This document shows, one piece after another, positions 15,088 through 48,677 of a DNA stretch of 64,000 bases. The DNA is from Mycolicibacterium flavescens (GTDB taxonomy: Bacteria > Actinomycetota > Actinomycetes > Mycobacteriales > Mycobacteriaceae): NCBI RefSeq assembly GCF_001722335.1, contig NZ_MIHA01000004.1, forward strand, positions 186,001 through 250,000, read 5' to 3'. A program made the position numbers and the translations under genes. Numbering within the stretch: position 1 is the stretch's first letter; each line of letters begins with the position of its first letter. The notes under the pieces are model-generated. The model made no database searches. It had not been told where the DNA came from and saw only the letters and a program-made list of their open reading frames with translations.

Positions 15088-15126
15088 GCTGACTTGCCTG
15101 CCTTTTCCTGGTTGAGGGTGCCGGTG

Positions 15127-23182: not shown

Positions 23183-23186
<4 letters not shown>
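18840..23186 (-). CDS. mbtF: mycobactin NRPS MbtF (C-A-PCP-terminal E-like domain)
   Basis: This 1448-aa synthetase adds the terminal (cyclised) hydroxylysine. Domains: condensation at about 8-440 with HHIIIDG at 143-149; adenylation at about 465-960 with FTSGTTGRPKG (about 592), YNCYGPTETTV and KIRGFRVEPGEIAAVL; carrier with LGLDSIVALSVVQ (Ser about 980); and a C-terminal condensation/epimerisation-like domain at about 1030-1448. In the last domain the HHxxxDG motif reads HVLAMDPASW (about 1157), so the second, catalytic His is Val. There is no thioesterase; release may occur by cyclisation. Start is GTG 23186, overlapping the mbtE stop (GTGA). M. tuberculosis MbtF is 1461 aa. Confidence 0.94.
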
Positions 23187-28271
<5,085 letters not shown>

Positions 28272-28279
<8 letters not shown>

Positions 28280-33251: not shown

Positions 33252-33313
33252 CGTGTCGGCGTCACAGTCGATTCCGGGGATCTGCGGATCTGGTTCGCAG
33301 CACAAACACCCAT
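33248..33313 (-). CDS. 21-aa leader peptide coupled to mbtT
   Basis: ATG 33313 is preceded by GGAGGG six bases upstream, the best ribosome site near this operon start. The frame encodes MGVCAANQIRR followed by SPESTVTPTR and stops at 33248, its TGA overlapping the mbtT ATG (ATGA). Ribosomes that finish the leader could reinitiate on mbtT, which has no clear Shine-Dalgarno of its own. It has one Cys and one Ile but no codon run suggesting amino-acid attenuation. Expression is inferred; the IdeR-like boxes lie just upstream. Confidence 0.5.
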   Translation of the reverse strand: MGVCAANQIRRSPESTVTPTR

Positions 33314-33330: not shown

Positions 33331-33349
33331 TTAGCGCAGGCTGCCCTAA
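33331..33349 (-). promoter_or_regulatory. IdeR-like iron box 1 upstream of mbtT
   Basis: TTAGCGCAGGCTGCCCTAA matches the mycobacterial IdeR consensus TTAGGTTAGGCTAACCTAA at 14 of 19 positions, with both outer quartets intact. It lies 18 bases upstream of the leader ATG, so iron-loaded IdeR should repress the mbtT-H operon. Confidence 0.75.
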
Positions 33350-33453: not shown

Positions 33454-35184
33454 CTAGGGCTTGGCCATCACCCAACCGCTCGCGGCGACACGCTGGTTCC
33501 AGAACTGGGCGTACTGGCCGCCGCGCTGCATCAGATCGGCGTGCGTGCCCCGGTCCTCGACCGTGCCGTGGTCGGAGAGCACGACGATGTTGTCGGCGGC
33601 CGTCACCGTCGACAGTTTGTGCGCGATCACGATCACCGTGCTGCCCTGCGCGAGCGTGCGGATCGACTCCGCCACGTGGTGCTCGTTCTCGGGGTCCAGC
33701 GCGCTGGTGGCCTCGTCGAACAGCACGATCGGCGCGTTCTTGACCAGGGCGCGGGCGATCGACACCCGCTGGCGTTCGCCGCCGGACAGCGCCGAACCGC
33801 CCTCCCCGACGCGGGTCTGCCATCCGTCGGGCAGGCGTTCGACCACCGACAGCAGCCCCGCCGTGCGCGCCGCCTCGACGATCTCGTCGTCGGTGGCGTC
33901 GGCGCGGCCGATGCGGATGTTCTCCCACAGTGTGTCGTCGAACAGGTAGACGTCCTGGAACACCAGCGACAGCTGGGCCATCAGGTCGGCGGTCTGCTGA
34001 TCGCGGACGTCGACCCCGCCGACCCGCACCACACCGGCGTCGACGTCGTAGAAGCGGGCGATCAGCTTGGTGATCGTCGACTTACCGGACCCGGACGGGC
34101 CGACCAGCGCGGTCATCGTGCCGGGTTCGGCGACGAACGTGACGTCAGCGAGCACCCGGCGGTCGCCGTAGCCGAACGCGACGCCGTCGAATTCGACCCG
34201 GCCCGGCTGCCCGGCCCGCGCCGGGGTGACGGGCTCCGGCAGCGCCGGGGTCTCCAGGATCGAGGTGATGCGCTGCAGTTCGGTCGTCGCGAGCCGCATC
34301 GCCGACCCGAGTTCGGCCAGCTGCGAGAGCGGGGACGCGAACCGCGCGGCCAGCCCGAGGATCGCGACCAGCGTGATCGGGTTGACCTCGCCGCTCACCG
34401 CGATCCAGGCGCCCACCGCGATCAGCACCGAGAAAACCGCTTGCACCGCAACGCCGTTGAGCATCAGCCCGGCGACCGACTGCCACAGCGCCGAGCGCCC
34501 GGCCCGGTGGTGGGTCTCCAGCGCGTCGCCGAGCGGCTTGTAGTCCGCACCGGTGCGGCCGAACGCGCGCAGCACCGGCTGGTAGCGCGCGAACTCGATC
34601 ACCCGGTTGTTGACCTCGGTCGCGGCGTCGTGGGTCCGCACCTCCGCGGCGGCGATCAGCCCCGAGGTGAACCGGCCGCAGACGACCAGCAGCGCGCCGC
34701 CGACGACGGCCACCACCCCGATGCGCCAGTCGAAGAAGAACAGGCCGACCGCGACGGTGGCCGCGCTGACCGAGTTGACCACCAGCGGGGTCAGCAGGTT
34801 GCCGCCGCTGGTGCCGACGAACACGGTGCCCTTGACCGCGATCTGCGAGACGTTGCCGACGGTTTCGCGGGTGAACCAGCCCAGCGGCAGGGTGACCATG
34901 TGATCGCCCATCCGGTGGTGCAGCAGCCGCATCGTGGTCAGCGCCATCCGGATCGCGAGCTTGGCCTGCGCGTAGTTGGCGAAGGCGCCGACGACCACGG
35001 CCAGCGCCATCAGCAGCAGCCACCGCCCGGTGGCCGCGTAGTCACCGTCGAACAGCGAGACGGTGACCGGCACCAGCAACAGCATCACCAGGCCGTGCAG
35101 CACGCCGTAGACGCTCACGACGGCCAGGAAAGTGAACATCTTGCCCCGCTCGGGGCCGAGGATCTGCAGGAATCCGCGGATCAT
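33454..35184 (-). CDS. ABC half-transporter, IrtB/YbtP-type, siderophore locus
   Basis: This 576-aa half-transporter has an N-terminal six-helix exporter-fold domain (about 1-310) and a C-terminal ATPase. Walker A is [15 protein letters not shown] (about 361), signature LSGGERQ (about 465), Walker B IVLFDEATSALD and H-loop VIVIAHKLSTV, all complete. It overlaps the partner gene by ATGA and should form a heterodimer with it. Exporter-fold dimers IrtAB and YbtPQ import ferric siderophores across the inner membrane, and this one resembles the IrtB half. A location between mbtB and mbtT under an iron box supports a siderophore substrate; whether it imports or exports cannot be told from sequence. 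Confidence 0.82.
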   Translation of the reverse strand: MIRGFLQILGPERGKMFTFLAVVSVYGVLHGLVMLLLVPVTVSLFDGDYAATGRWLLLMALAVVVGAFANYAQAKLAIRMALTTMRLLHHRMGDHMVTLPLGWFTRETVGNVSQIAVKGTVFVGTSGGNLLTPLVVNSVSAATVAVGLFFFDWRIGVVAVVGGALLVVCGRFTSGLIAAAEVRTHDAATEVNNRVIEFARYQPVLRAFGRTGADYKPLGDALETHHRAGRSALWQSVAGLMLNGVAVQAVFSVLIAVGAWIAVSGEVNPITLVAILGLAARFASPLSQLAELGSAMRLATTELQRITSILETPALPEPVTPARAGQPGRVEFDGVAFGYGDRRVLADVTFVAEPGTMTALVGPSGSGKSTITKLIARFYDVDAGVVRVGGVDVRDQQTADLMAQLSLVFQDVYLFDDTLWENIRIGRADATDDEIVEAARTAGLLSVVERLPDGWQTRVGEGGSALSGGERQRVSIARALVKNAPIVLFDEATSALDPENEHHVAESIRTLAQGSTVIVIAHKLSTVTAADNIVVLSDHGTVEDRGTHADLMQRGGQYAQFWNQRVAASGWVMAKP

Positions 35185-37013
35185 CGGGCCACCTCCTGCT
35201 TCTCCTGTGCGTTACCCGCCGTGTACGTCTGCCACATGCGCGCATACTGGCCACCCGCGGCCAGCAGCTCGTCGTGGCGGCCCTGTTCGACGACCCGCCC
35301 GCCGTCGAGCACGACGATATTGTCGGCGGACACGATAGAGCCGAGCCGGTGCGCGATGACCAGCACGGTGCGCCCGACGATCAGCTGCGACAGCGCCTGC
35401 TGGATCTGGGCCTCCGAATCCGGGTCGGCGAACGCGGTGGCCTCGTCGAGCACCAGGATCGGGGTGTCGGCGAGGATGGCGCGCGCGATGCTGACACGCT
35501 GGGCCTCGCCGCCGGAGAAGTGCGCGTCCTCGTCGACGATCGAGTCATAACCCTTGGGCAGCGCCATGATCCGGTCGTGGATGCGGGCGGCCGTGGCGGC
35601 GGCGACCACCTCGTCGTCGGTGGCGTCGGCGCGGCCGAGGCGGATGTTGTCGGCGACGCTGATGCCGAGCAGCTGCACGTCCTGCAGGACGAACCCGACG
35701 TGCCGGTACAGCTCGGCGGGCGCGACGTCGCGGACGTCGACCCCGCCGATGCGCACCGCGCCGTCGGCGACGTCGTGGAACCGCGGGACCAGGGTCGCCA
35801 GCGTGGACTTGCCGCTGCCGGACGGCCCGACCAGCGCGGTGATGGTGCCGGCGGGCAGAGTCAGCGACACCCCGTGCAACACGGTGTGTTCGCCGTCGTA
35901 GCTGAACCGCACGTCGTCGAACTCGATCGAGTTGTCGCGCGGCACCTGCGGTTCGCGCGCCACCGCCAGCGCCGGCGTGTCCAGCAGACGCTGCAACCGG
36001 CCCGCCGCGGCGGCCGCCTGACGTTTGATGTGCGCGGAGTAGCCGACGGTCAGCACCGCGGCCGGGATGGTGACCGCGACCAGCGTCGCGCCCAGCACCT
36101 CGATCGGGCTGACCCAGCCGCTGCGGACGAACCAGTAGCCGCCTGCCAGGTTGGCCAGCAGCAGGACCGGGGTGTCGATGAAGATCGACGAAATCGCCTT
36201 GACACGCACCAACGGTCCGATCCACTCGGCGAAGCCGTCGTTGAACTCGTCGGCCGCGTCGGCGAAACGCTTGTGCGCCTTGCCGGTCTCGCCGAACGTC
36301 TTGACCACCGAGACCCCGGCGATGAACTCGACGATCGTGGCGCTGATGCGCTCGACGCCGCGGTCGAGGCGCTCCATCTGGGTGCGGGTGTCGCGGCCCA
36401 GCGCGACGTAGACGCCGATGTAGAACGGCACCGTCACCATCGCCAGCAGCCCGAGCCGCCAGTCCAGGTAGAAGCAGTAGATGAGACCGAACAGCGGGGT
36501 GGCCAGCGCGCCGGTGTTCTCGACCGCCGAATGCGCGACCAGGAAGTGCAGCTCCCCGACGTCGTGCTGGACGGCTTTGCGCACCTCGCCCGAGGACCGG
36601 GTGCCGAACCAGCCGAGCGGAAGCCGGCCGAGCTTGTCGACGATGCGCAGCCGCAGCGACCGCTGCAGGTCGACGTCGGCGGCGTGGGTGATGGCCAGCG
36701 CCGCGCCGCCGGCGACGGCGCGCACCAGCAGCGCCACGATCACCACCGCGACGACGGTCCAGATGCGCGTGGTGTCCGGCGGCCCGTCGGCCAGCAGGGC
36801 GCGGCCGATCTCGACGATGCCGATGAACGGCACGATGGTGGCCAGCGACGCGAGCAGCTGATAGCGCTGCGCGCGGGCCGAGCGGGCGCGGGTCGGGGCC
36901 AGCAACTGCTGGAGCGCGAGCTTGTCGTACGTCGCCGCCCGTTTCGCGGCGTCGCCTGCGGATTCGGGCGACGCGGCGTCGACGTCGGTCTGCGCGGTCT
37001 GCACAGCGGTCAT
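35181..37013 (-). CDS. ABC half-transporter, IrtA/YbtQ-type without siderophore-reductase domain
   Basis: This 610-aa partner of the preceding protein has a soluble N-terminal segment of about 60 residues, a six-helix domain (about 60-345) and an ATPase. Walker A is [15 protein letters not shown] (about 401), and the signature is FSGGEAQ (about 499), a variant of LSGGQ. Walker B is ILVLDEATAFADPDSE, a wording typical of IrtA-like halves, and the H-loop is LVIAHRLGS. IrtA of M. tuberculosis carries an extra FAD-binding siderophore-interacting (SIP) domain at its N-terminus; that domain is absent here. The ATG at 37013 has GGAGGG upstream and an IdeR-like box at 37034-37052. Confidence 0.82.
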   Translation of the reverse strand: MTAVQTAQTDVDAASPESAGDAAKRAATYDKLALQQLLAPTRARSARAQRYQLLASLATIVPFIGIVEIGRALLADGPPDTTRIWTVVAVVIVALLVRAVAGGAALAITHAADVDLQRSLRLRIVDKLGRLPLGWFGTRSSGEVRKAVQHDVGELHFLVAHSAVENTGALATPLFGLIYCFYLDWRLGLLAMVTVPFYIGVYVALGRDTRTQMERLDRGVERISATIVEFIAGVSVVKTFGETGKAHKRFADAADEFNDGFAEWIGPLVRVKAISSIFIDTPVLLLANLAGGYWFVRSGWVSPIEVLGATLVAVTIPAAVLTVGYSAHIKRQAAAAAGRLQRLLDTPALAVAREPQVPRDNSIEFDDVRFSYDGEHTVLHGVSLTLPAGTITALVGPSGSGKSTLATLVPRFHDVADGAVRIGGVDVRDVAPAELYRHVGFVLQDVQLLGISVADNIRLGRADATDDEVVAAATAARIHDRIMALPKGYDSIVDEDAHFSGGEAQRVSIARAILADTPILVLDEATAFADPDSEAQIQQALSQLIVGRTVLVIAHRLGSIVSADNIVVLDGGRVVEQGRHDELLAAGGQYARMWQTYTAGNAQEKQEVAR

Positions 37014-37118: not shown

Positions 37119-37979
37119 ATGGATCTGGCAGGCGTCGGTGTGTGGAGTTCGCAGTTGCGCTACGGCGACCCGGGTGAGGCCGCCGAAGCCGCCGCCGAAC
37201 TCGAGGAGCTGAAGTTCACCGCGCTGTGGATCCCCGATGTCGGCGGGCCGGTGCTGGACTCGGTGGACCACTTGCTGTCGTCGACCAAGCAGGTGACGGT
37301 GGCGACTGGGATCCTCAACCTGTGGATGCACGAACCGGCTGACGTGGCCGCCAGGTACGCGTCGCTGACCGAACAGCACGGCGAGCGGTTCCTGCTGGGC
37401 ATCGGCGTGAGCCACGCCCCGCTCATCGACTCGCGCGAGCCCGGCCTGTACCGCAAGCCGCTGGCCGCGACCCGCAAGTACCTCGACGACATCGACAAGA
37501 CCGCGCAGCCGGTTCCGGTGGCCAACCGGGTGCTGGCGGCGCTGGGACCCAAGATGCTCGAGCTGTCGGCCACTCGGGCCCGCGGTGCGCACCCCTACCT
37601 GGTGACCCCCGACCACACGCGCTACGCCCGCGAACACCTCGGTGACGAGCCGCTGCTGCTGCCCGAGCAGACGGTGCTGCTGACCACCGACGCCGACGAG
37701 GCCCGTCGGCTTGGAACAGATTGGCTGCGTTCGTATCTCGCGCTTCCGAACTACGCGAACAATCTGCTGCGATCCGGCTTTACCGAAGAGGACGTCTCAT
37801 CGGTCAGCGACCGGTTGTTCGACGCGATCATCGCCTGGGGTGACGAGGACACCGTGCTGCGGCGGGTGCGCGAGCACCACGACGCGGGCGCCGACCACGT
37901 GTGCGTGCAGGTGCTGACCGCCGATCCGCGGGAGTTCCCGCGCGATCAGTGGCGTCGCCTGGCGGCCGCTCTAGGCTGA
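37119..37979 (+). CDS. LLM-class F420-dependent oxidoreductase
   Basis: This 286-aa TIM-barrel protein is of the luciferase-like, F420-binding group (MSMEG_4141-type). It starts MDLAGVGVWSSQLRYGDPG, with AAGGA 8 bases before ATG 37119. Family features are the early FTALWIPDVGG strand, TGILNLWMHEPADVAARYASL, the FLLGIGVSHAPLID loop and GRYRKPL-like YRKPLAATRKYLDDID. The substrate is unknown. It is the only plus-strand gene among the minus-strand mbt genes before mbtA. It is divergent from the ABC pair across an iron box, and its 3' end overlaps mbtB by 9 bases. A role in modifying or recycling the siderophore is only a guess from position. Confidence 0.82.
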   Translation: MDLAGVGVWSSQLRYGDPGEAAEAAAELEELKFTALWIPDVGGPVLDSVDHLLSSTKQVTVATGILNLWMHEPADVAARYASLTEQHGERFLLGIGVSHAPLIDSREPGLYRKPLAATRKYLDDIDKTAQPVPVANRVLAALGPKMLELSATRARGAHPYLVTPDHTRYAREHLGDEPLLLPEQTVLLTTDADEARRLGTDWLRSYLALPNYANNLLRSGFTEEDVSSVSDRLFDAIIAWGDEDTVLRRVREHHDAGADHVCVQVLTADPREFPRDQWRRLAAALG

Positions 37980-40900
37980 CGATTCGAGCTCGGACAGCAC
38001 GGCGGCGCTGTCCATCTCGGCCACCTCGAGGTACACCTCGGCGACGGCGTTGAGCCGCTCGCCGTCGGGTTCGCGGGCGATGAGCCGGTCGGCCAGCCCG
38101 GCCACGGTGCGCGCGGCGAACATGTCGGTCACCATCACCGTCGGGATGTCCAGCCAGTCCCGGACCCTGGCGATCACCTGGGTGGCCAGCACGGAGTCCC
38201 CGCCGAGCGAGAAGAAGTCGTCGTCCATGCCGACGCGGACGTCGTCACCGACCCCGAGTACGTCGGCGACGATCGCCGCCAGCGCGGACTCCAGCGGCGT
38301 TACTGGAGCCCGATAAGCCTGCGCGGCAGGCGGTTCCGCGTCGACCAGCAGCCGCGCGACGGCGGGCCGATCGATCTTGCCGTTGACGGTGAACGGGATC
38401 CGGTCGGTGACCACGACGACCTTCGGGATCATGTGCGCCGGAACGAGATCGGTGAGCGCGGTGGTGACGGCGCGCGCGTCGACGGCCGGGTCGTCGGTGC
38501 GCACCAGCGCGGCCAGCACGTCGCGCTCGCCGGACAGCACCGCCGCCACCGCGGCGTCGACGCCGGCGACCCGCTTGAGCGCGGCCTCGACCTCGCCGAG
38601 TTCGATCCGGTAGCCGCTGATCTTGACCCGGTGATCGACGCGGCCGACGAACTCCAGCGACCCGTCGGGCAGGTAGCGCACGAGATCGCCGGTGCGGTAC
38701 CAGGTCCGGCCGTCGTGTTCGACGAACTTCTCGGCGGTCAGATCGGGCCGGCCCCGGTAGCCGCGGGCGATACCGCGTCCGGCGAACCACAGTTCGCCGG
38801 GCACCCAGTCCGGGCAGTCGGAACCGTCGGAGGCCACGACCCGGCAGGCGTTGTTCGGGAACGGCACGCCGTAGGGCACCGACGTCCAGTGCGCAGGGAG
38901 TTCGTCGACCTCGCAGACGGTGCCGTGCACCGCGGTCTCGGTCGCACCGCCCAGGCCGGCCGCCCGCACTCCAGGGGCCGAGTTGCGCAGCGCCCGAACG
39001 AGTTCCGGGCGCACCCAGTCACCTCCGAGCAGCACCACCCGCAGACTGGTCAGGCGGTCGCCGCCGACCTCGAGCAGCATGTCGAGCCAGCCGGGCATCC
39101 AGTTCAGGAACGTCACGCCGTGCTGCTGGATCAGCTGGGCCCAGGTGTCGGGGTCGCGGCGCTGCGCTTCGTCGACGACGACGACGGTCCCGCCGGCGCG
39201 CAGCAGCGCGAAGATCTCCAGCACCGACATGTCGGCCTCCAGCGAGGCCAGCGCCAGCGACCGGTCCGACGCGTCGAGACCGAAGTGGTCGGTGACGAAC
39301 TCGATGGTGTTCATCACCGCGTCGTGGGTGAGCTCGACGCCCTTGGGCTCACCGGTCGAACCGGAGGTGAACAGCACGTAGGCCAGCGCGTCGGGGTCGA
39401 CGATGACAGGCCCGGCGGCGGGATGACCCGCGACCGCGTCGGCCACCGACAACGTCGGCACGTCGGCCTCGACGGTGGCGCCGCCGCACAGCAGCACCGC
39501 TGCGACGCCGCTCGTGCCCAAGATGCGTGCGGTGCGTTCGGCGGGCTGGTCGGCGCCGATCGGCAGGTACGCCGCGCCGGCCGCCAAGATGCCCAGCACC
39601 GCCGGAAGCTGCTCGGCGCACTTGGGGCCGATCAGCGCGACCAGATCACCGGGGTGAACCCCGTTGTCCTGCAACGCTTTGGTGACCGCGAGCGCGCGTT
39701 GGCGCAACTGCCCGTAGGTCAGCTCGCCGTCGTCACCGACGACGGCGACCGCGTCGGGCCGTTGCGTCGCGGTGCGGAAGAAGCCGTCGTGGATGGCCTC
39801 GCCGCTGGGCGCCGCGGTGGTGCTGTTGACCGCGCGCCGGACCGCCGCGGAGGCCTCGGGTACCGCGGGCGGGTCGGGCCGGTCCCAGGCGGCGTCGTCG
39901 GTGGCCAGCCGCGTCAGCTCGGCGAGGTGGTAGGCGAACATCGCGTCGGCGACGCCGGGCCGGAACGCGTCCACGCGCACGTCCCAGTTGATCATCAGCC
40001 CCTCGACCAGCGGGGTGGCCTGCGCGTCGATGAGTACCTGCGGGCCTTGGGAAATCGTCCACACCGGGGCGCCGAACTGGTCGGTGACCTCGCCGGCGAA
40101 CAGATCGCCGAGGCCGAGCGCGCTGGTGTACACGATCGGGGCCAGCACCTGGTTGCCGCGGTGCCTGCCGAGGTCACGCAGGACCGACAGCCCGGAGTAG
40201 CGCGAGTGGCGGGCGGTGGTGTGCAACGTCTCCTGTACCGCCCGCGCGCGTTGGGTCGGGGTGCGGGTTTCGGTCAGGTCGATGTCGAGCATCAGCGACG
40301 ACGTGAAGCACCCGACCAGTTTCTCGACGTCGGGGTGGAACGGTTCGCGGCCGAACATCGGCAGGTTCAGCAGGAACCGCGGATTGCTCGACCACCGGGC
40401 CAGCGCGTTGGCGTAGGACGCCGCGACCGCCATCGCCGGGGTGATGCCGCGGCGGTGCGCGGCGGCGAACAGCGCGTCGCGGGTGGGTACGTCGAAGATG
40501 TGCCACAGCCGCACGCTGCGCCGCGGGTCCTGTTGTTCGGCGGGCGGAACCAGCGGCAGCACAGGCGCTTCCGGCAGCTCCGGGATCCGCTCGGCCCACC
40601 ACCGCCGGTCCTCCTCGGACGGGCCCGGATCGGTGGCGGTCAACGCCGCGCGGTACTCGCGGTAGGTGTACCCGAGTTCGGGCAGGTCGCCGCCGCGGTA
40701 GAACACCGCCAGATCGGCCATGAACTTGCGGTAGCTCACCGCGTCGGCGGCGTTCATGTCCATGTCGACGTGCAGGCGGGTGCGACCGTCGGGGCGCAGC
40801 GACAGGCTCAGTTCCAGCACGTCGCCGTCGAGGATCTGGTGCGACTTCTGGTGCCGGATCTCCTCCAGCCGCTCGTCGGCGGCGGCGTCGTCGAGGTCAC

Positions 40901-41435
40901 GCAGGTCGTAGACGGTGACCGGCAGGCCGCGGTCACCGATGCGCTGGGTGCCGTCGGGCAGGATCTCCACGCGCAGCATCGGATGGCGCGCAACGAGTTT
41001 GGTGGCCGCGTAGCGCAACCGCTCCGGGTCCACGCCCGCCCCGTCGAATTCGACGTAGAGGTGCGCGGCGACGCCGCCGAGCTGCTGATCGTCGTTGCGG
41101 CCCAACCACATCGCGTGCTGCATCGGGGCCAGCGGGAACGGCCCGTCGTCCTCGTTGGGGCCGGCCGGGTCGGCGGGTTCTGCGGTCTCGGCGCCGGCGT
41201 CGTGCCCGGTTCCCGACCGCTGCGCCACCAGCGCCGACCACGCTGCGACAGTCGGGTTTTCGGCCAGCGCGGCGAAGTTGATGTCGATGCCCTGTTTACG
41301 CCAGCGCCCGGACAGCGACATCATGCGGATCGAGTCCAGCCCCGAGGCGATCAGGTCGGCGTCGGGGTCGACCTCGTCGGGGCTGACGCCGAGCAGTTCG
41401 GCCACCTCGTCGCGGACGGTGCGGGCACCACTCAC
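37971..41435 (-). CDS. mbtB: mycobactin NRPS MbtB (ArCP-Cy-A-PCP, no TE)
   Basis: This 1154-aa synthetase receives the aryl acid from MbtA and joins it to Ser/Thr, cyclising to the oxazoline. Domains: aryl carrier (1-75; SGLDSIRMMSLSG, Ser 33); cyclisation at about 95-520 with the Cy motif DMNAADAVS (about 227-235); adenylation at about 545-1040 with FTSGSTGEPKG (about 689), WYRTGDLVRYLPDG and VKISGYRIELGEVEAAL; carrier with LGGDSVLATQVIA (Ser about 1081). The M. tuberculosis protein (1414 aa) ends in a thioesterase; this one stops after a 40-residue helical tail, and the thioesterase is encoded separately at 32508. GTG 41435 has GGAGG 5 bases upstream. An IdeR-like box is 15 bases further. 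Confidence 0.95.
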   Translation of the reverse strand: MSGARTVRDEVAELLGVSPDEVDPDADLIASGLDSIRMMSLSGRWRKQGIDINFAALAENPTVAAWSALVAQRSGTGHDAGAETAEPADPAGPNEDDGPFPLAPMQHAMWLGRNDDQQLGGVAAHLYVEFDGAGVDPERLRYAATKLVARHPMLRVEILPDGTQRIGDRGLPVTVYDLRDLDDAAADERLEEIRHQKSHQILDGDVLELSLSLRPDGRTRLHVDMDMNAADAVSYRKFMADLAVFYRGGDLPELGYTYREYRAALTATDPGPSEEDRRWWAERIPELPEAPVLPLVPPAEQQDPRRSVRLWHIFDVPTRDALFAAAHRRGITPAMAVAASYANALARWSSNPRFLLNLPMFGREPFHPDVEKLVGCFTSSLMLDIDLTETRTPTQRARAVQETLHTTARHSRYSGLSVLRDLGRHRGNQVLAPIVYTSALGLGDLFAGEVTDQFGAPVWTISQGPQVLIDAQATPLVEGLMINWDVRVDAFRPGVADAMFAYHLAELTRLATDDAAWDRPDPPAVPEASAAVRRAVNSTTAAPSGEAIHDGFFRTATQRPDAVAVVGDDGELTYGQLRQRALAVTKALQDNGVHPGDLVALIGPKCAEQLPAVLGILAAGAAYLPIGADQPAERTARILGTSGVAAVLLCGGATVEADVPTLSVADAVAGHPAAGPVIVDPDALAYVLFTSGSTGEPKGVELTHDAVMNTIEFVTDHFGLDASDRSLALASLEADMSVLEIFALLRAGGTVVVVDEAQRRDPDTWAQLIQQHGVTFLNWMPGWLDMLLEVGGDRLTSLRVVLLGGDWVRPELVRALRNSAPGVRAAGLGGATETAVHGTVCEVDELPAHWTSVPYGVPFPNNACRVVASDGSDCPDWVPGELWFAGRGIARGYRGRPDLTAEKFVEHDGRTWYRTGDLVRYLPDGSLEFVGRVDHRVKISGYRIELGEVEAALKRVAGVDAAVAAVLSGERDVLAALVRTDDPAVDARAVTTALTDLVPAHMIPKVVVVTDRIPFTVNGKIDRPAVARLLVDAEPPAAQAYRAPVTPLESALAAIVADVLGVGDDVRVGMDDDFFSLGGDSVLATQVIARVRDWLDIPTVMVTDMFAARTVAGLADRLIAREPDGERLNAVAEVYLEVAEMDSAAVLSELESSA

Positions 41436-41449: not shown

Positions 41450-41468
41450 TTAGTACAGGCTGCCCTAA
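41450..41468. promoter_or_regulatory. IdeR-like iron box between mbtB and mbtA
   Basis: TTAGTACAGGCTGCCCTAA matches the IdeR consensus at 14 of 19 positions. It lies 15 bases from the mbtB start and upstream of TATATT (41490-41495), the likely mbtA -10. One bound IdeR unit can therefore repress both divergent genes. Confidence 0.75.
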
Positions 41469-41534: not shown

Positions 41535-43208
41535 ATGAGCACCGGTACCGAGCAGCGCCGATCCGGAGAACAGCAGCCCGACGTCGGCGACCTGCTGACC
41601 GGTTTCGTCCCGTTCCCCGCCGACCGCGCCGCGGAGTACCGACGCGCGGGGTACTGGACCGACGAACCGCTGGACTCGATCCTGCGCGATGCCGCGGCAA
41701 AATGGCCCGACCGCACCGCGGTCATCGACCCCGACGTCAGCTACACCTTCGCCGAACTCGACGCGCGCGCCGACCGGATCGGCGCCGCGCTCAGCGACCG
41801 CGGTCTGGCGCCCGGGGACCGCGTGCTGCTGCAGCTGCCGAACATCTGCGAGTTCGCGGTGGCGTTGTTCGGTGTGCTGCGCGCGCGGCTGGTCCCGGTG
41901 ATGTGCCTGCCCGGCCACCGGTCGGCCGAGCTCAACCACTTCGCGGCGGTCAGCGGCGCCGTCGCCGTGATCGTGCCCGATGTGGTGGCCGGCTTCGACT
42001 ACCGGGACCTGGCCGACGACCTGGTGCGCAACAACCCCGCGCTGCAACACGCTTTCGTGCACGGTGAGCCGGGCCACCACCAATCCTGGCGTGCCCTGGC
42101 CGATTTCGACGGGCCGCTGCCGCAGCGGCCGCCGGTCGACGCCGACGTGCCCGCGCTGCTGCTGGTTTCGGGCGGGACGACCGGGCTGCCCAAGCTGATC
42201 GCCCGCACCCACAACGACTACGTCTACACCGCTCGGACCCATGCGCAGGAATGCCACATGACCGGCGACGACGTCTACCTCGTCGTGCTGCCCGCCGGGC
42301 ACAACTTCCCGCTGGGCTGCCCGGGCCTGCTGGGCTCGATGACCGTCGGCGCGACGTCGGTGTTCACCACCGACGCCAGCCCCGAGGCCGCGTTCGCGCT
42401 GATCGACCGGCACCGGGTCACCGTCACCGGGCTGGTCAACGCGCTGGCCAAGGTGTGGACCCAGGCCTGCGAGTGGGAGCCCGTGCTGCCGACGTCGCTG
42501 CGGGTGGTGCAGGTCGGCGGTTCCCGGATGACCCCGCAGGAGGCCGAGTACATCCTCAACGGCCTGGCCCCCGGGTTGCAGCAGATCTTCGGGATGGCCG
42601 AGGGCATGCTGAACTTCACGCGGCCCGGCGACCCGGTCGACGTGGTGGTCAACACGCAGGGCCGGCCGATGTCGCCGCACGACGAGATGCGGGTGGTCGA
42701 CGAGTCCGGCGCCGAGGTGCCCCCCGGCGAGGAGGGTGAACTGCTGGTCCGCGGCCCGTACACGCTCAACGGGTACTACCGCGCCGAGGAGGCCAACGCG
42801 CGCTCGTTCACCCCGGACGGCTTCTACCGCAGCGGGGACCGGGTGCGCATCTTCGCCGACGGCCCGCGCGCCGGCTACGTCGAGGTGACCGGCCGCATCA
42901 AAGACGTCATCCACCGCGGCGGTGAGACGGTCTCGGCGTCCGACCTCGAGGAGCACCTGTTCGCCCACCCCGCGGTGTACGCCGCGGCCGCGGTCGCGCT
43001 GCCCGACGAGTATCTCGGCGAGAAGATCTGCGCGGCAGTCGTGTTCAAGGGCGCGCCGATCACCCTGGCTCAGCTCAACGAGTTCCTCGACGAGCGCGGC
43101 GTCTCGTCGCACTGCAGGCCCGATGTGCTCGCGCCGCTGCCCGCGCTGCCCAAGACCGCGGTCGGCAAGGTCGACAAGAAGAAGGTGGTCAGCCAGCTGA
43201 CCGGCTGA
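41535..43208 (+). CDS. mbtA: aryl-acid AMP ligase MbtA
   Basis: This 557-aa stand-alone adenylating enzyme activates the aryl acid as acyl-AMP and loads it on the aryl carrier domain of MbtB. Signatures are LLVSGGTTGLPKLIARTHNDY (in parts; P-loop about 211), the substrate pocket block LPAGHNFPLGCPG (about 250-262, with the Cys-Pro-Gly form seen in salicylate rather than dihydroxybenzoate enzymes), FGMAEGMLNFTR, FYRSGDRVRI and the C-terminal Lys in PKTAVGKVDKKKV. Mycobacterial MbtA uses salicylate; here 6-methylsalicylate from the convergent PKS is the likely substrate (inference). ATG 41535 follows GAGGGG. Confidence 0.95.
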   Translation: MSTGTEQRRSGEQQPDVGDLLTGFVPFPADRAAEYRRAGYWTDEPLDSILRDAAAKWPDRTAVIDPDVSYTFAELDARADRIGAALSDRGLAPGDRVLLQLPNICEFAVALFGVLRARLVPVMCLPGHRSAELNHFAAVSGAVAVIVPDVVAGFDYRDLADDLVRNNPALQHAFVHGEPGHHQSWRALADFDGPLPQRPPVDADVPALLLVSGGTTGLPKLIARTHNDYVYTARTHAQECHMTGDDVYLVVLPAGHNFPLGCPGLLGSMTVGATSVFTTDASPEAAFALIDRHRVTVTGLVNALAKVWTQACEWEPVLPTSLRVVQVGGSRMTPQEAEYILNGLAPGLQQIFGMAEGMLNFTRPGDPVDVVVNTQGRPMSPHDEMRVVDESGAEVPPGEEGELLVRGPYTLNGYYRAEEANARSFTPDGFYRSGDRVRIFADGPRAGYVEVTGRIKDVIHRGGETVSASDLEEHLFAHPAVYAAAAVALPDEYLGEKICAAVVFKGAPITLAQLNEFLDERGVSSHCRPDVLAPLPALPKTAVGKVDKKKVVSQLTG

Positions 43209-43286: not shown

Positions 43287-46200
43287 TCAGGACACCTGTT
43301 CGGCGGCCGGCGCGCACAGCAGCTCGCCGATGTGCTCGCAAACGGCTGCGGCCGTGGGGTATTCCCACAGCAGCGTCGGCGGCAGCGACAGCCCGGTCTG
43401 CTTCTCCAGGCTGCGCAGCAGCCCGACCGTCATGATCGAGTCCACGCCGAGCTCGACCAGCGGCAGCCCGGTGTCGACGTCGTCCACGGCGACCCCCAGC
43501 TGGGCGGCGACCGCGGCGGCCACCACCTCGGCGATCCGCTGCGGGTCGGCGCCGGCCAGATCCGGGACCGCGACGTCGTCGACAGCGGCTTCGTCGTGCG
43601 CGGCGGGCGCCACATCGGCCAGCATCGGCACCGATGCGGCAGCCGGAAGTACCGGCAGCACAACGACATTGGCTTCGTCGTACCGCATCGCCAGGTCCAG
43701 CGCCCGCATGGCCTCGTCGGCGCCGATGGTGTCCATGCCCAGCGCGTCGAGTTGGGCGGCGACGAATCCCGACGTCGACCCCATGCCCAGCCCCCGCCAC
43801 GCGGTCCACGCGACGCTGACCGTGCGGTCGCCGAGCCGGCGACGGTGGCGGGCCATCACGTCGAGGAACGAGTTCGCGCACGCGTAGGCGCCCTGGCCGG
43901 GGAAGCCCGCGAGGTAGCCGCACGACGAGAACAGCACCATCCAGTCCAGTTGCTCGGGCGGGAACACCTCGTGCAGGGTCAGCGTGCCGTCGACCTTGGG
44001 CCGCATGGCCGCGGTGAAATCGTCGGCCGTGGTGTTGACCAGCAGCGCGCCCGCCTCGACACCGGCGGCGTGGATCACCCCGCGCACCGGCGGCAGTTCA
44101 CGCAGCGCATCGCGCAACACGTCGGCGGCGCCGGCGGCGGCGATGTCGACCGCGAGCACCCGCACCGACACCCCGCGCTCCTCGAGCGCCGAAACGGTGC
44201 GCACCAGTTCCGACTCGGCGTCCCAGTCCGTGCGGTTGGGCATCCCGCTGCGCGACAGCAGCACCAACCGGCGGGCCCCGATGTCGGCCAGCCGCTGCGC
44301 CATCCGCAGACCCAGCGCACCGGTGCCGCCGGTGATCAGGTAGGTGCCGCCCGCCGAGCACTGCAGCGGGCTGCCGGTGCCGCGCGGGGCCGGCGCCAGC
44401 CGCGCCGAGCGGGCCCGGCCGTCGCGCACGACGACCACGGGATGCCCGTGCACGGAGGCCAGCACCCCGATCGGCAGCGGTCCGGCCGCGACGTCGAGCA
44501 CGCCGCCGAACACGTCCGGGTGCTCGGCCGCGGCGACCCTGGCCAGGCCCCACAGCGGCGCGTGGGCCACGTTGACACCCTCGTACACCTGGTCGGTGAG
44601 CACCCAGAGCCGCGCCTTGGCGCCGTGGTCGAGCAGCGCGCGCAGCGTCTGCATCACCGCACCGACCGAAGCCTGCGGGTCCTCGCCGCGGCGCGGGATC
44701 AGCAGCACCGCGGTGTCGCGGTTCAATGCCGCAGCGGCGCCGGCGAATTCGGTGGCGTCGGCATGCAGGTCGTAGGGCACCTCGGCGGCCGACAGGTCAC
44801 GCACCACCTGTTCGCGGGTGGCGTCGTCGCCGCCGACCACCGTCACCGCGGCCGGTCGGGCGTCGTCCTGCCACGGCACCGGATGCCACGACAGCTGGTG
44901 CAGCATCCGCGAAACGTCGCTGCCCGAAGGGTTCTCGAGTTCGTCGAACGTCATCCCGGTCAGCGCCGCCAGCACCTTGCCGGACTCCTCGGCCAGCACC
45001 ACGTCTGTCGTCGTCCCGCCGGGCCGGCGCCGGACGTGCAGCAGCGCGACGTCGGGCGCCTGCCCGTGCACCTGGACGCGTTCGATGCGGGCCGGCATCC
45101 GCAGCCGCGGCGGCCCGCCGAACACCGTCGAGGCCGCCGAGGTGGCGGCATCGAGCAGCGACGCCCACGTCGCCGGGGTGGTGCGGTCACCGCGGGCGGC
45201 GACCTTGGCGATCAGTTCGCCGTCACCGCCGTGCAATTCGAGGATCTCCCAGTCGAATCCCATCGCGGCCACGCCCAGCGTGGCGAGCGTGTCGACGACG
45301 TGGCCCGACGGCAGCGCCTCGGGGCAGCGGTCGCGGGCGGCGCCCTCGTCGAGGACGTCACCGACGAGGTCCTCGATGTCCTCGTCGGCGGCGACCACCG
45401 CGCTGGAGTGGGTGAGCCAGCCGCCGTCCTCGTCGTCCTCGTCGTCGACGAGGCGGGTGGCCAGGGTCAACCCGCGATCCTGCAGCACGACCTGCACGTC
45501 GCGGGCGCGGCCCGGGGCGACGGGTGTCCGCAGCCGGACGTCGACGAGATCGCCGGCGCGGCCGCGTCGGCTGTCCATGGCGCGGGCGGCGGCCAGGAAC
45601 GTGTTGACGATGACCGCGGCGGGCACGATCTCGGTGCCCTTGACCGGGTGGTCGCCGGGGTAGGGCCGGGTGTCGAGGTCGACGCGGGTCTGCCACATGC
45701 GGGAGGCCACCGCACCGGTCACCTCGGTGCGGCCGCCGAGCAGGGTGTGGCTGTCCACGTCGTGCACCGCGCGCCCGCCGGGCGGCGGGGTCGGGGTGCG
45801 CCAGAAGCGCCGGTGCTGCCACTGGGTCACCGGTACGTCGGCATCCCACGGCGCCGCGGCGGGCAGACCGACGTCCACGGGCGCGCCGTGGCAGTGCAGC
45901 TGCGCGACGGCCGTTGCGACGGAGCGCGTTTCGGGACGGTCGCGGCGCAGCAGCGGGACCACCGCGTGGTCGTCGACGCCGGATTCGGTGAGGGTCTCGA
46001 CGATCGAATGCGCGACCACCGGGTGCGCCGAGACCTCCAGGAACAGCCGGTGTCCGTCGTCGATCGCGGCCGAGACGGCTTCGGCGAACCGCACCCGGTC
46101 GCGCAGGTTGGCCACCCAGTAGTGCTGATCGCGGCGCGCCGCCGAGCGCGGATCGGGCAGCGCGGTGGTGTAGAGCGGGATCTGCGGTGGGCGCGGCGGC

Positions 46201-48446
46201 GGCAACTGGCCGGTGAGCCGGCCGAGCTCGGCGGTCAGATCGTCCATCGCGGGGCTGTGGAACGCGACGTCGGTGTTGACGCGGCGCATCATCACGCCCT
46301 CGTCGCCCCACTGCCGGCACAGGTCCTCGACCCCGGCGACCACACCGGAGATCACCGTCGACTGCGGGGAGGCGCTGATCGCCGCCACCACGTCGGTGCG
46401 GCCGGCCAGCCGGCGCTCGGCTTCGTCGAACGGCAGGCGCGCCAAGGCCATCGCGCCCTTGCCGAGCACCGACCGGAAGCCGCGGGCCCGGTAGCAGGCG
46501 ACCGCGGCGCCGACGGTCAGGTCGAACACCCCGGCGGTGACGCACGCGGCGACCTCGCCGACCGAGTGTCCGATGATCGCTGCGGGCCTGACACCGCGCC
46601 CGCGCAGCACCGCCGCGAGACCGACCTGCATCGCAAAGGTCAGGGCCTGCACCTGGTCGGTGCCGCCGAGTTCGCCAGTGGACAGCGCCGCGCGCGCCGA
46701 GAAGCCGAGTTCAGCGCCGAAGACCGGGTCGATGGTGTCGATCACCGCTGCGAACTCCGGTGCAGCGGTGAGTAGTTCGCGACCCATTCCGGTCCAGTGC
46801 GAGCCGTGGCCGGAGAACACCCACACCGCGCCGTCGGCCGCGGAGCGCAGCACCGATCCGGTGACCGCCCCCGGGTCGCCCCCGGCGACGGCGGTGAACG
46901 CCTCGGCGGCCGCGGCGGCGGTGTCGGCCACGACCGCGGCGCGCACCGGTTCGTGCGAGCGCCGCGACCACAGCGTCGCCGCGACCGGCTCGAGCGCCTG
47001 GGTGTCGTCGTCGCGGAGGCGGTTCGCCAGCGCGCGGGCCTGTGCCTGGACGCGGGTGGTCGACCGCGCCGAGATCGGCAGGATCATCGGGAAGCTCTGC
47101 GGCCGCGCGGTTTCGGCAGCCTGTGTGTCGGGCGCCTCCTCGAGCAGGACGTGGGCGATGGTGCCGCCGTAGCCGTAGCTGCACACCGCGGCGCGGCGCG
47201 GGGCACCGGCGGCGTGGTCCCACGGCTCGGTGCGCGTGGGGACCCGCAGGCCGCTCGCGGCCCAGTCGACGGCCGGGGTCAGCGTCGTGACACCGGCGGT
47301 GGGCGGAATGGTCCGATGGTGCAGCGCGAGGGCCGCTTTGATGAGCCCGATGACCCCGGCGCCGCCTTCGAGGTGACCGACGTTGGGTTTCACCGAGCCG
47401 ATGCGGCACGGCGCGTCGGCCGGCCTGCCCTGCCCGTAGACCGCCGCCAGCGCGCCCACCTCGGTGGGGTCGCCGCTGGGCGTGCCGGTGCCGTGCGCCT
47501 CGACGAAGCTGACGCTCTCGGGCGCGACGCCCGCGAATTCGCATGCCCGCCGGAACATGTCGGCCTGCGCCTCACCGTTGGGCGACATGATGCCGACAGT
47601 GCGGCCGTCCTGCGCGACGGCGCCGCCGCGCACCACCGCGTACACGTGGTCCCCGTCGCGCAGCGCGTCGCTCAGGCGTTTGAGCACGACCACACCCGCA
47701 CCTTCGCCGCGGCCGTAACCGTCGGCGGCGGCGTCGAATGTCTTGCAGCGTCCGTCGGGTGCGGTGGCGCCCGCCACGTCGAGCACCCGGGTCAGGCCGG
47801 GTCCGATGAGTGCGCTGACCCCGCCGGCGATCGCCAACGACGTCTCACCGGTGCGCAGCATCTGGCACGCCTGGTGCACCGCGACCAGCGATGCCGCGCA
47901 CGCGGCGTCCAGCGCGACGCTGGGGCCGCGCAGATCCAACAGGTGCGACACCCGGTTGGCGATGCCGCACAGCGAGGTGCCGATACCGGTCCACGCCTCG
48001 ATACCGGGCAGGTCCTCCATGATCAGCTTGCCGTAGTCGTTGGAGTTGACGCCCATCAGCACCGCGGTGTCGCTGCCCGCCAACGACTTCGGCGGCACCC
48101 CGGCGTGTTCGAGCGCCTCCCAGCTGACCTCGAGCGCGAGCCGCTGCTGGGGGTCCATGAGTTCGGCTTCGCGCGGTGAGACGCCGAAGAACTCGGCGTC
48201 GAAGCCGGGCAGGTCGTCGAGGAACGTGCCCCACCGCGTGACGTCTTTGAGGATCGCGGCGTTGCGCGGGTCGCGCCGCAGGTACGGCTCCCAGCGTTCC
48301 TCGGGCACCTCGCGCACGTCGCTGCCGCCGCCGAGCAGGAACTTCCAGAACTGCGCGGGTGTGCCGATGTCGCCGGCCACTCGGCAGCCGATCCCGATGA
48401 TCGCGACGGGCTCGGGGTGGGTGTCGGTCGGGTGGGCCTCCGTCAC
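43287..48446 (-). CDS. iterative type I PKS, 6-methylsalicylic acid synthase type (KS-AT-DH-KR-ACP)
   Basis: This about 1719-aa single-module synthase has ketosynthase at about 15-430 (LDAACAASLVAVHQ, Cys about 182; EAHGTGTPSGDP; VKPNVGHLEGGAG), acyltransferase at about 545-850 (VFSGHGSHWTGMG; GHSVGEVAACVTAG, about 630), dehydratase/thiohydrolase-type domain at about 890-1160 (DHPVKGTEIVPAAV), ketoreductase at about 1370-1560 (LITGGTGALGLRMAQ; SSCGYLAGFPGQGAYACAN with Ser and Tyr-x3-Asn) and carrier at about 1640-1710 (VELGVDSIMTVGLL, LPPTLLWEYPTAAAV). Order, length and the ACP/KR wording are those of bacterial 6-methylsalicylate synthases. An intact KR favours 6-methylsalicylate over orsellinate. 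It occupies the place of mbtI, converges with mbtA and carries an IdeR-like box. The start is uncertain: GTG 48446, or TTG 48455; the open frame to 48518 runs through the iron box. Confidence 0.88.
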   Translation of the reverse strand: MTEAHPTDTHPEPVAIIGIGCRVAGDIGTPAQFWKFLLGGGSDVREVPEERWEPYLRRDPRNAAILKDVTRWGTFLDDLPGFDAEFFGVSPREAELMDPQQRLALEVSWEALEHAGVPPKSLAGSDTAVLMGVNSNDYGKLIMEDLPGIEAWTGIGTSLCGIANRVSHLLDLRGPSVALDAACAASLVAVHQACQMLRTGETSLAIAGGVSALIGPGLTRVLDVAGATAPDGRCKTFDAAADGYGRGEGAGVVVLKRLSDALRDGDHVYAVVRGGAVAQDGRTVGIMSPNGEAQADMFRRACEFAGVAPESVSFVEAHGTGTPSGDPTEVGALAAVYGQGRPADAPCRIGSVKPNVGHLEGGAGVIGLIKAALALHHRTIPPTAGVTTLTPAVDWAASGLRVPTRTEPWDHAAGAPRRAAVCSYGYGGTIAHVLLEEAPDTQAAETARPQSFPMILPISARSTTRVQAQARALANRLRDDDTQALEPVAATLWSRRSHEPVRAAVVADTAAAAAEAFTAVAGGDPGAVTGSVLRSAADGAVWVFSGHGSHWTGMGRELLTAAPEFAAVIDTIDPVFGAELGFSARAALSTGELGGTDQVQALTFAMQVGLAAVLRGRGVRPAAIIGHSVGEVAACVTAGVFDLTVGAAVACYRARGFRSVLGKGAMALARLPFDEAERRLAGRTDVVAAISASPQSTVISGVVAGVEDLCRQWGDEGVMMRRVNTDVAFHSPAMDDLTAELGRLTGQLPPPRPPQIPLYTTALPDPRSAARRDQHYWVANLRDRVRFAEAVSAAIDDGHRLFLEVSAHPVVAHSIVETLTESGVDDHAVVPLLRRDRPETRSVATAVAQLHCHGAPVDVGLPAAAPWDADVPVTQWQHRRFWRTPTPPPGGRAVHDVDSHTLLGGRTEVTGAVASRMWQTRVDLDTRPYPGDHPVKGTEIVPAAVIVNTFLAAARAMDSRRGRAGDLVDVRLRTPVAPGRARDVQVVLQDRGLTLATRLVDDEDDEDGGWLTHSSAVVAADEDIEDLVGDVLDEGAARDRCPEALPSGHVVDTLATLGVAAMGFDWEILELHGGDGELIAKVAARGDRTTPATWASLLDAATSAASTVFGGPPRLRMPARIERVQVHGQAPDVALLHVRRRPGGTTTDVVLAEESGKVLAALTGMTFDELENPSGSDVSRMLHQLSWHPVPWQDDARPAAVTVVGGDDATREQVVRDLSAAEVPYDLHADATEFAGAAAALNRDTAVLLIPRRGEDPQASVGAVMQTLRALLDHGAKARLWVLTDQVYEGVNVAHAPLWGLARVAAAEHPDVFGGVLDVAAGPLPIGVLASVHGHPVVVVRDGRARSARLAPAPRGTGSPLQCSAGGTYLITGGTGALGLRMAQRLADIGARRLVLLSRSGMPNRTDWDAESELVRTVSALEERGVSVRVLAVDIAAAGAADVLRDALRELPPVRGVIHAAGVEAGALLVNTTADDFTAAMRPKVDGTLTLHEVFPPEQLDWMVLFSSCGYLAGFPGQGAYACANSFLDVMARHRRRLGDRTVSVAWTAWRGLGMGSTSGFVAAQLDALGMDTIGADEAMRALDLAMRYDEANVVVLPVLPAAASVPMLADVAPAAHDEAAVDDVAVPDLAGADPQRIAEVVAAAVAAQLGVAVDDVDTGLPLVELGVDSIMTVGLLRSLEKQTGLSLPPTLLWEYPTAAAVCEHIGELLCAPAAEQVS

Positions 48447-48465: not shown

Positions 48466-48484
48466 TCTGGATAGCCTTGCCTAA
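48466..48484 (-). promoter_or_regulatory. IdeR-like iron box upstream of the PKS
   Basis: The minus strand reads TTAGGCAAGGCTATCCAGA, 14 of 19 matches to the IdeR consensus, with an intact TTAGG and AGGCTA core. It ends 19 bases before the chosen GTG. The site ties the PKS to the same iron regulon as the mbt genes. Confidence 0.7.
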
Positions 48485-48677
48485 TAACCCACACGCCATG
48501 GCGGCAATAGTGGCACAATCTCGGCCGCTTTTGGAATTTACGGCGGCAGTCGAAGGGTGGTGCCGGTCACGTCGCCGACGCTCCCGGGCGACGGCTGTGG
48601 GGCGCCGATTTCCACGCCAGGGCTGCGAACCCGGTCAGATCGCGACCCTGCCGCAAATTTCGGCGACCGGCGGCACG

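What the first reader, a model, noticed from the sequence alone, without database searches (positions are those of the whole stretch)
43287..48446. 6-methylsalicylate-type iterative PKS embedded in a mycobactin cluster
Seen: a single 1719-aa KS-AT-DH-KR-ACP protein with complete active-site motifs, in the slot used by mbtI/mbtJ in M. tuberculosis, convergent with mbtA. Known: mycobactins bearing 6-methylsalicylate instead of salicylate have been described chemically from some rapid-growing mycobacteria, and bacterial 6-MSA synthases have this domain order and length. Inferred: this gene is the source of that aryl cap.
Basis: partly seen in the sequence, partly recalled or inferred. Interest (0 to 1): 0.92.

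Follow-up and report, generated by a model that had tools for sequence, protein, structure and literature searches.

The report
Polyketide-made ring for mycobactin siderophore
In this mycobacterium, and in about a third of the mycobacterial genomes sampled, a large enzyme that most likely builds a methylated salicylate ring from acetate units sits where other species keep the gene that makes the plain salicylate ring of the iron-scavenging molecule mycobactin.

Summary
Window 43287-48446 (minus strand) encodes an intact 1719-aa KS-AT-TH/DH-KR-ACP iterative PKS in a mycobactin (mbt) cluster, convergent with mbtA: the slot and orientation that mbtI has in other mycobacteria. It is 46% identical over its length to ChlB1 (6-methylsalicylate synthase of chlorothricin), keeps the catalytic residues, and groups with ChlB1-type enzymes apart from mycobacterial modular PKSs (100/100). 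New here: (1) in a genus sample of 297 genomes it occurs in 98, the salicylate synthase MbtI in 158, both in 14; (2) an iron box precedes it in 40 of 40 orthologous loci; (3) the partner ligase MbtA splits on one branch into PKS-linked and mbtI-linked types; (4) 11 genomes keep mbtI in tandem with the PKS; (5) the M. phlei orthologue is the window's sister. Best reading: it makes 6-methylsalicylate, which MbtA loads in place of salicylate. The product is inferred, not shown. 6-Methylsalicylate mycobactins are old chemistry (recalled). A 2009 paper already noted four Mycobacterium PKSs 'of unknown function' as nearest kin of fungal 6-methylsalicylate synthases; they may be these genes. I saw no gene-level account in the held papers. 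New variant of a known kind.

The parts
43287..48446 (-). 6-methylsalicylate-synthase-type iterative type I PKS (MSAS), 1719 aa
46932..48413 (-). KS domain with C-terminal extension, residues 12-505; active Cys C183; Tyr244 and Tyr426 in the MSAS-type cavity motifs
45882..46826 (-). AT domain, residues 541-855; GHSVGE and DVAFHSP motifs as in ChlB1
44925..45749 (-). TH/product-template-type DH domain, residues 900-1174; His933 and Asp1099 align with the AviM PT dyad
43794..44348 (-). KR domain, residues 1367-1551
43329..43526 (-). ACP domain, residues 1641-1706; Ser1670
48466..48484 (-). IdeR/DmdR1-type iron box, 19 bases before the MSAS GTG (TTAGGCAAGGCTATCCAGA on the gene strand)
41535..43208 (+). 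mbtA, aryl-acid AMP ligase, convergent with MSAS; N302 and I351 are of the MSAS-linked type
41450..41468 (+). iron box between mbtA and mbtB
37971..41435 (-). mbtB-like NRPS: carrier domain at the N terminus, condensation-type, A and a second carrier domain
33454..37013 (-). two ABC exporter-type genes, irtB-like (33454-35184) and irtA-like (35181-37013)
   Evidence: the irt names are recalled
32508..33305 (-). thioesterase gene (PF00975)
33331..33349 (+). third iron box, 25 bases before the thioesterase ORF that precedes the mbtC-mbtG run
31199..32911 (-). mbtC-like ketosynthase (maximal ORF; overlaps the thioesterase ORF)
28272..31202 (-). mbtD (NF037940, over cut-off)
18840..28279 (-). mbtE-like (23183-28279) and mbtF-like (18840-23186) NRPSs
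17533..18927 (-). mbtG-like lysine/ornithine N-monooxygenase

Best explanation
The gene encodes an iterative 6-methylsalicylate synthase that supplies the aryl cap of a mycobactin. Under iron starvation the box upstream of the gene releases transcription, together with mbtA/mbtB and the thioesterase-mbtC-G run. The enzyme joins one acetyl and three malonyl units, reduces one keto group, cyclises and releases 6-methylsalicylic acid through its TH domain. MbtA adenylates this acid and loads it on the N-terminal carrier domain of MbtB, where salicylate would otherwise go; the rest of the mycobactin assembly line is standard. The locus arose in one lineage of mycobacteria, where the PKS came to lie beside mbtA and mbtI was lost in most descendants. 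Shown: gene, domains, catalytic residues, kinship with ChlB1, linkage, conserved box, near-exclusion with mbtI. Inferred: the product, its use by MbtA, iron regulation, the order of gain and loss.
For: ChlB1 (UniRef Q0R4P8; its function is recalled) 46% identical over the full length. Catalytic residues intact. KS-AT trees. Two KS tyrosines (Y244, Y426) in 41 of 41 mycobacterial and 13 of 13 other MSAS/OSAS-type rows, both together in 0 of 8 modular rows; PMC2661021 (passages) reports two tyrosines that block the small KS cavity of MSAS, at positions 229 and 400 of 1KAS (matched here by motif, numbering recalled). The mid-region aligns with the AviM product-template domain 7vwk including His and Asp. 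MbtI over cut-off in 7 of 36 MSAS genomes (36 of 41 loci submitted). Genus sample of 297: MSAS 98, MbtI 158, both 14, neither 55; Fisher odds ratio 0.064, p 3.5e-22, kinship not corrected, so the p-value is overstated. MSAS within 10 kb of mbtA in 69 of 72, and convergent with it in 37 of 41 named loci, the other 4 showing no mbtA in the DNA held. Iron box in 40 of 40 upstream regions, against 5 of 2000 resampled ones. 28 of 29 MSAS genomes without mbtI also lack a TIGR01803 enzyme over cut-off (that this family holds isochorismate pyruvate lyases is recalled). MbtA: the MSAS/mbtI label needs one change on the tree; N302 in 67 of 67 versus 0 of 29, I351 in 65 of 67 versus 0 of 29; position 351 aligns with CahJ V350, which lines ring positions 4 and 5, and CahJ was crystallised with 6-methylsalicyl-AMP (PMC11253843 section 2.6 and Table, passages). 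M. phlei orthologue P0023 80% identical, sister of the window at 85/98; mycobactin P of M. phlei carries 6-methylsalicylate (recalled).
Against: No product measured. The window's own genome is not held, so an mbtI elsewhere in it is not excluded. None of the 25 NCBIfam models shown (of 37) reaches its cut-off for the PKS. The best PDB match over the whole length is mycocerosic acid synthase; no MSAS was named among the 60 of 78 matches shown. One orthologue (P0207, M. vanbaalenii) is labelled 5-methyl-1-naphthoate synthase by its source; no characterised naphthoate synthase was at hand to test this. CahJ takes 6-methylsalicylate with the Pro and Val of salicylate-type MbtA, so the MbtA changes are not needed for acceptance; they lie on one branch and count as one event, and many other MbtA columns differ too. 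14 of 98 MSAS genomes keep mbtI.
Confidence: 0.88

Rival explanations
1. The PKS makes another aromatic acid (orsellinate, 6-ethylsalicylate or 5-methyl-1-naphthoate) that caps the siderophore or goes elsewhere.
For: One orthologue is labelled 5-methyl-1-naphthoate synthase by its source; such synthases share the domain order (recalled); starter choice cannot be read from sequence here.
Against: KR present with its Ser, Tyr and Asn, against orsellinate; two relatives without a KR are shorter (1271 and 1292 aa from stop to stop). A 1-naphthoate lacks the ortho hydroxyl needed for iron (recalled chemistry). The two cavity tyrosines fit a short chain, though they also occur in KR-less relatives and no naphthoate synthase was compared. 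MbtA keeps Asn257, Phe258 and Cys262 of salicylate-type ligases.
Confidence: 0.07
2. The PKS makes 6-methylsalicylate, but for a separate product; the mycobactin keeps plain salicylate from another source.
For: In the cahuitamycin producer salicylate and 6-methylsalicylate routes coexist (PMC4757757, abstract and passages); 14 of 98 MSAS genomes keep mbtI.
Against: 84 of 98 MSAS genomes lack MbtI; linkage to mbtA and own iron box; 28 of 29 such genomes also lack a TIGR01803 enzyme over cut-off.
Confidence: 0.04
3. It is a modular or mycocerosic-type lipid PKS that happens to lie beside mbtA.
For: Best PDB match over the whole length is mycocerosic acid synthase.
Against: KS-AT tree separates it from 8 mycobacterial modular PKS rows at 100/100; AT identity 50-56% to MSAS/OSAS-type enzymes versus 37-41% to modular ones over the whole domain (two short AT fragments at 45 and 53% left aside); no ER domain among the Pfam matches.
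Confidence: 0.01

Closest known systems
ChlB1, 6-methylsalicylate synthase of chlorothricin (Streptomyces antibioticus, Q0R4P8)
   Same: Domain order, length (1756 vs 1719 aa), 46% identity, catalytic residues
   Different: In chlorothricin the 6-methylsalicyl group is moved to a carrier protein by ChlB3 (PMC9573744, abstract in the listing); here the neighbour is a free-acid AMP ligase of a siderophore line, with an iron box upstream
Cahuitamycin system (CahI salicylate synthase, CahJ ligase, unlinked MSAS; Streptomyces gandocaensis)
   Same: An MSAS proposed to feed a salicylate-type AMP ligase of an iron-binding oxazoline peptide (PMC4757757, abstract and passages)
   Different: There the MSAS is unlinked and the MbtI homologue CahI remains; here the MSAS is inside the cluster and mostly replaces mbtI
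mbt cluster of mycobacteria with MbtI
   Same: mbtA-mbtB pair, MbtD, NRPSs, monooxygenase, same slot and orientation beside mbtA
   Different: Ring from acetate/malonate by a PKS, not from chorismate by MbtI
Four Mycobacterium PKSs of unknown function, sister to fungal 6-MSAS-type PKSs (PMC2636887, 2009; Results section read)
   Same: Genus, and closeness of the KS to iterative 6-MSA/orsellinate enzymes rather than to the lipid PKSs
   Different: The paper calls them modular and gives no context; their accessions are in a figure I could not see, so identity with this gene is a guess
AviM orsellinate synthase (PDB 7vwk, PMC9135731)
   Same: Homologous product-template domain with His-Asp pair
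   Different: AviM has no KR

Membership tests
Bacterial 6-methylsalicylate synthase | KS-AT-TH(DH)-KR-ACP on one chain of about 1700-1760 aa, active sites intact | tested here: met
Bacterial 6-methylsalicylate synthase | KS-AT groups with a characterised MSAS and not with modular reducing PKSs | tested here: met
   33 MSAS/OSAS-type rows with ChlB1 versus 8 modular rows, 100/100; ChlB1 is the only row whose function I know (recalled); the exact sister of the mycobacterial clade is weak (84/79)
Bacterial 6-methylsalicylate synthase | Two tyrosines closing the small KS cavity | tested here: met
   Y244 and Y426; feature from PMC2661021, positions matched by motif
Bacterial 6-methylsalicylate synthase | Makes 6-methylsalicylate | not testable with these tools
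   needs expression and LC-MS
Mycobactin (mbt) gene cluster | mbtA-mbtB pair, MbtD over its curated cut-off, NRPSs and N-monooxygenase together | tested here: met
Mycobactin (mbt) gene cluster | MbtI salicylate synthase in the locus | tested here: not met
   no match in the window; absent from 29 of 36 genomes with named MSAS loci
Iron-regulated (IdeR/DmdR1-box) promoter | 19-bp box near TTAGGTTAGGCTAACCTAA upstream | tested here: met
   DmdR1 sites of this form in PMC7174319 Table 1; binding by IdeR not tested
Orsellinate synthase (AviM type) | KS-AT-PT-ACP without KR | tested here: not met
   KR present with its Ser, Tyr and Asn
5-methyl-1-naphthoate synthase (AziB/NcsB type) | Groups with AziB/NcsB; hexaketide naphthoate product | not tested
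   no characterised sequence was found; one source label only
Mycocerosic/modular reducing PKS | KS-AT grouping with mycobacterial modular PKSs; ER domain in MAS | tested here: not met
   MAS itself was not in the tree

The most novel reading that the evidence does not exclude
One ancestral mycobacterium swapped the chorismate-derived ring of its main siderophore for a polyketide ring in a single event: a PKS entered beside mbtI, MbtA changed with it, and mbtI was then lost along most lines, while some species still keep both ring sources in tandem and may make mixed caps. About a third of the genus would then make mycobactin with a polyketide ring. If the four Mycobacterium PKSs of PMC2636887 are these genes, this siderophore enzyme is also the nearest bacterial kin of the fungal 6-methylsalicylate synthases.
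Probability: 0.5. Interest if true: 0.7.

Novelty: new variant of a known kind. Interest (0 to 1): 0.6.

Why it matters
It gives a gene and a clear test to an old chemical observation (6-methylsalicylate in some mycobactins, recalled). The usual first step of mycobactin synthesis, MbtI, which is studied as an antitubercular target (titles and abstracts in the listing), is missing from 84 of the 98 sampled genomes with this gene. The finding predicts from sequence which species make which cap, offers a natural pair of MbtA types for studying aryl-acid selectivity, and is a clear case of one enzyme class replacing an unrelated one inside a conserved pathway.

Tried and rejected
Modular or mycocerosic-type PKS: rejected by the KS-AT trees. 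Orsellinate synthase: rejected because a KR with its catalytic residues is present. Salicylate from another route in MSAS species: largely rejected, with one exception over cut-off, G035, and three weak matches below it (G009, G012, G023). MbtA pocket changes as independent proof: rejected, since the label changes once on the tree. I make no claim that the discriminating columns cluster at the pocket: many others differ too.

Led nowhere: finding the M. phlei genome itself (machine errors; the G259 enzyme is 86% identical to the M. phlei protein over 1319 residues, so not it); plasmid relatives (three records each, none covering 80% of the query). Literature on a gene for the 6-methylsalicylate cap: all 10 searches used. 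In the listings, and in the passages or sections that I saw of 12 papers, none names an MSAS in a mycobactin cluster. Chavadi et al. 2011 and Snow 1970 are not held and may hold more.

Rows dropped before counts: L037 (MSAS cut by the contig end) from the box count; for L022 and L025 I moved the start downstream by hand because the alignment ran into the upstream region, and for L024 I used 10001. L037 and L038 left out of the KS-AT tree; the tree used 10 of the 39 named-locus MSAS rows and left out MbtC. L130 (broken mbtA of G491) left out of the MbtA tree, which holds the window, 37 named loci, 29 of the 30 genomes and none of the 43. In one search, 26 of the 29 mbtI-only genomes with mbtA were compared, as mbtI coordinates of three were not listed. 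In one search, 30 of 144 mbtI-only genomes were given and 29 had mbtA. In one search, 36 of 41 loci were given.

Full report
What is there. The minus-strand ORF 43287-48446 encodes 1719 aa with KS, AT, a DH-like domain, KR and ACP. The GTG start is favoured over an upstream TTG because an iron box lies between them. The catalytic residues align with ChlB1. The gene lies in an mbt cluster: mbtA convergent with it, mbtB divergent from mbtA, then ABC genes, a thioesterase, an mbtC-like KS, MbtD (1476 bits, cut-off 1150), two NRPSs and a monooxygenase. On the other side come an ECF-type sigma factor, a HemN-like radical-SAM gene, a nitrite/sulfite reductase and a PAPS-reductase gene. tblastn with MbtI finds nothing in the window; its genome is not held.

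What kind of enzyme. ChlB1 is 46% identical over the full length; that ChlB1 makes 6-methylsalicylate is recalled. The mid-region matches the product-template domain of AviM (7vwk, E 8.2e-37), whose H949 is needed for cyclisation and whose D1104 matters little (PMC9135731, passages); both are kept as His933 and Asp1099. PMC4797705 (first of three parts read) reports evidence that this region of the fungal enzyme ATX is a thioester hydrolase domain that releases 6-methylsalicylate, leaves open whether that is its only role, and gives the build from one acetyl and three malonyl units. PMC2661021 (passages) reports two tyrosines that block the KS cavity of MSAS; the window has tyrosines in the matching motifs (Y244, Y426), as do 41 of 41 mycobacterial and 13 of 13 other MSAS/OSAS-type rows, while none of 8 modular rows has both. 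In a KS-AT tree (IQ-TREE, 41 rows) the mycobacterial enzymes form one clade (100/100) inside 33 MSAS/orsellinate-type rows that include ChlB1, separate from 8 mycobacterial modular PKS rows (100/100); the sister of the mycobacterial clade is weakly placed (84/79), and the window's nearest neighbour is M. phlei (85/98). Against this: the top PDB match is mycocerosic acid synthase, and one orthologue is labelled a naphthoate synthase by its source.

Distribution. A scan of named genomes gave 41 loci, all from mycobacteria by title. In 37 of 41 MSAS is convergent with mbtA and mbtA divergent from mbtB, with a gap of 2 bp to 5.3 kb (under 200 bp in 25); the other 4 show no mbtA in the DNA held. 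MbtI (TIGR03494 over cut-off) was found in 7 of the 36 genomes given: M. septicum, M. porcinum, M. houstonense, three M. peregrinum records and strain GA-1841, that is, the fortuitum complex and kin (that grouping is recalled). In a sample of the genus (297 genomes) the MSAS mid-region was found in 98 (E up to 1e-40), MbtI in 158, both in 14, neither in 55 (p 3.5e-22). Kinship is not corrected, and as the MSAS-linked MbtA is one side of one branch, the exclusion rests on few independent events. Of the 98, 72 were compared for linkage (the other 26 are among the genomes): 69 have MSAS within 10 kb of mbtA, one at 15.6 kb and two on another contig. In a class sample of 394 genomes, eight that had not turned up before matched, at 36-51% identity at most; their groups are not told, but one (G798) is 95% identical to a Parafrankia protein.

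Slot and order. Where mbtI is the only ring gene, it is convergent with mbtA in 25 of 25 same-contig genomes (26 compared), as MSAS is here. Eleven genomes have mbtI directly upstream of MSAS on the same strand (coordinates). In the MbtA tree they fall in one clade of 14 rows, three of which lack mbtI. Their MbtI proteins form one clade (100) that is not nested in any mbtI-only group sampled, which fits retention, though the base is unresolved. Three further genomes (G454, G515, G556) have a solitary mbtI nested among mbtI-only sequences (98), with no other mbt biosynthetic gene in the 19 kb fetched, which fits later acquisition. G491 has both, but its MSAS, mbtA and mbtB are all split between frames.

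Regulation. Three iron-box-like sites occur in the 64-kb window (0.12 expected): before the thioesterase that precedes mbtC-G, between mbtA and mbtB, and 19 bases before MSAS. The MSAS box is found in 40 of 40 orthologous upstream regions, against 5 of 2000 resampled ones, and the window's box equals the commonest form (11 of 40). The consensus is of the form printed for DmdR1 sites in PMC7174319 (passages); that IdeR recognises it is recalled.

Ring acceptance. MbtA of MSAS genomes (67 rows, window included) and of mbtI-only genomes (29) are split by one branch (SH-aLRT 100), so the label changes once. Asn302 is in 67 of 67 versus Pro in 29 of 29; Ile351 in 65 of 67 versus Val in 29 of 29; Met358 in 66 of 67 versus Leu in 29 of 29. 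By the alignment, position 351 is CahJ V350, which lines ring positions 4 and 5, and Gly328/329 are CahJ G327/G328 around position 6 (PMC11253843 section 2.6, passages). CahJ itself binds 6-methylsalicyl-AMP without these changes, so they are suggestive only and count as a single event.

Other ring sources. A TIGR01803 enzyme (isochorismate-pyruvate-lyase kin, recalled) over cut-off was found in 1 of 30 MSAS genomes, G035; of the 29 without mbtI, 28 lack it. For those 28 the MSAS is the only ring source among the kinds that I searched for.

What is known. 6-Methylsalicylate in mycobactin P of M. phlei (Snow) and its biosynthesis in M. phlei (Hudson, Campbell and Bentley 1970) are recalled, not seen. 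That mycobactin was first isolated from M. phlei is in PMC4810606 (passage). The nearest described system is cahuitamycin, with an unlinked MSAS beside a retained MbtI homologue (PMC4757757, abstract and passages). [quoted passage not shown] they may be this gene family, but the accessions are in a figure that is not held. In the listings of ten searches and the parts of 12 papers that I saw, no MSAS is named in an mbt cluster; this does not show that no such account exists.

Verdict. The finding holds. The enzyme kind is known; its place, its near-exclusion with MbtI, its conserved iron box and the matching split of MbtA make it a new variant of the mycobactin pathway. The product remains to be measured.

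Noticed in passing
window 49172-49888 (-) and 48538-49332 (-): An ECF-type sigma factor gene (Sigma70_r2 and r4) lies just upstream of the MSAS, with an overlapping downstream ORF without any Pfam match that could be its partner.
   Followed up: no
L173, L174, L175 (G454, G515, G556): A solitary mbtI with no other mbt biosynthetic gene in the 19 kb fetched, in genomes whose mbt locus carries the MSAS; nested among mbtI-only sequences in the MbtI tree.
   Followed up: partly
L176 (G491, 28000-46000 of C8): MSAS, mbtA and mbtB are all split between frames in one genome, which looks more like assembly errors than decay; described only.
   Followed up: partly
L038 (M. houstonense ATCC 49403T), 10001-15107: The best MSAS alignment starts only at 11472; the reading frame seems interrupted in this record, while mbtI is present next to it.
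   Followed up: no
G035 contig C49, 149908-152237: A chorismate-binding enzyme and a TIGR01803 enzyme lie about 1.3 kb apart: possibly a second, pyochelin-type salicylate route in an MSAS species.
   Followed up: no
window 37119-37979 (+): An F420-dependent LLM-class oxidoreductase (TIGR03620) sits between mbtB and the ABC genes; a related gene lies downstream of mbtB in close relatives but upstream of MSAS in others (L017-L021, L023, L034, L040).
   Followed up: partly
PMC2636887 against L001-L041: The four Mycobacterium PKSs of unknown function that the paper puts as sister to fungal 6-MSAS-type enzymes may be this siderophore gene, which would tie the origin of the fungal enzymes to its lineage.
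   Followed up: partly
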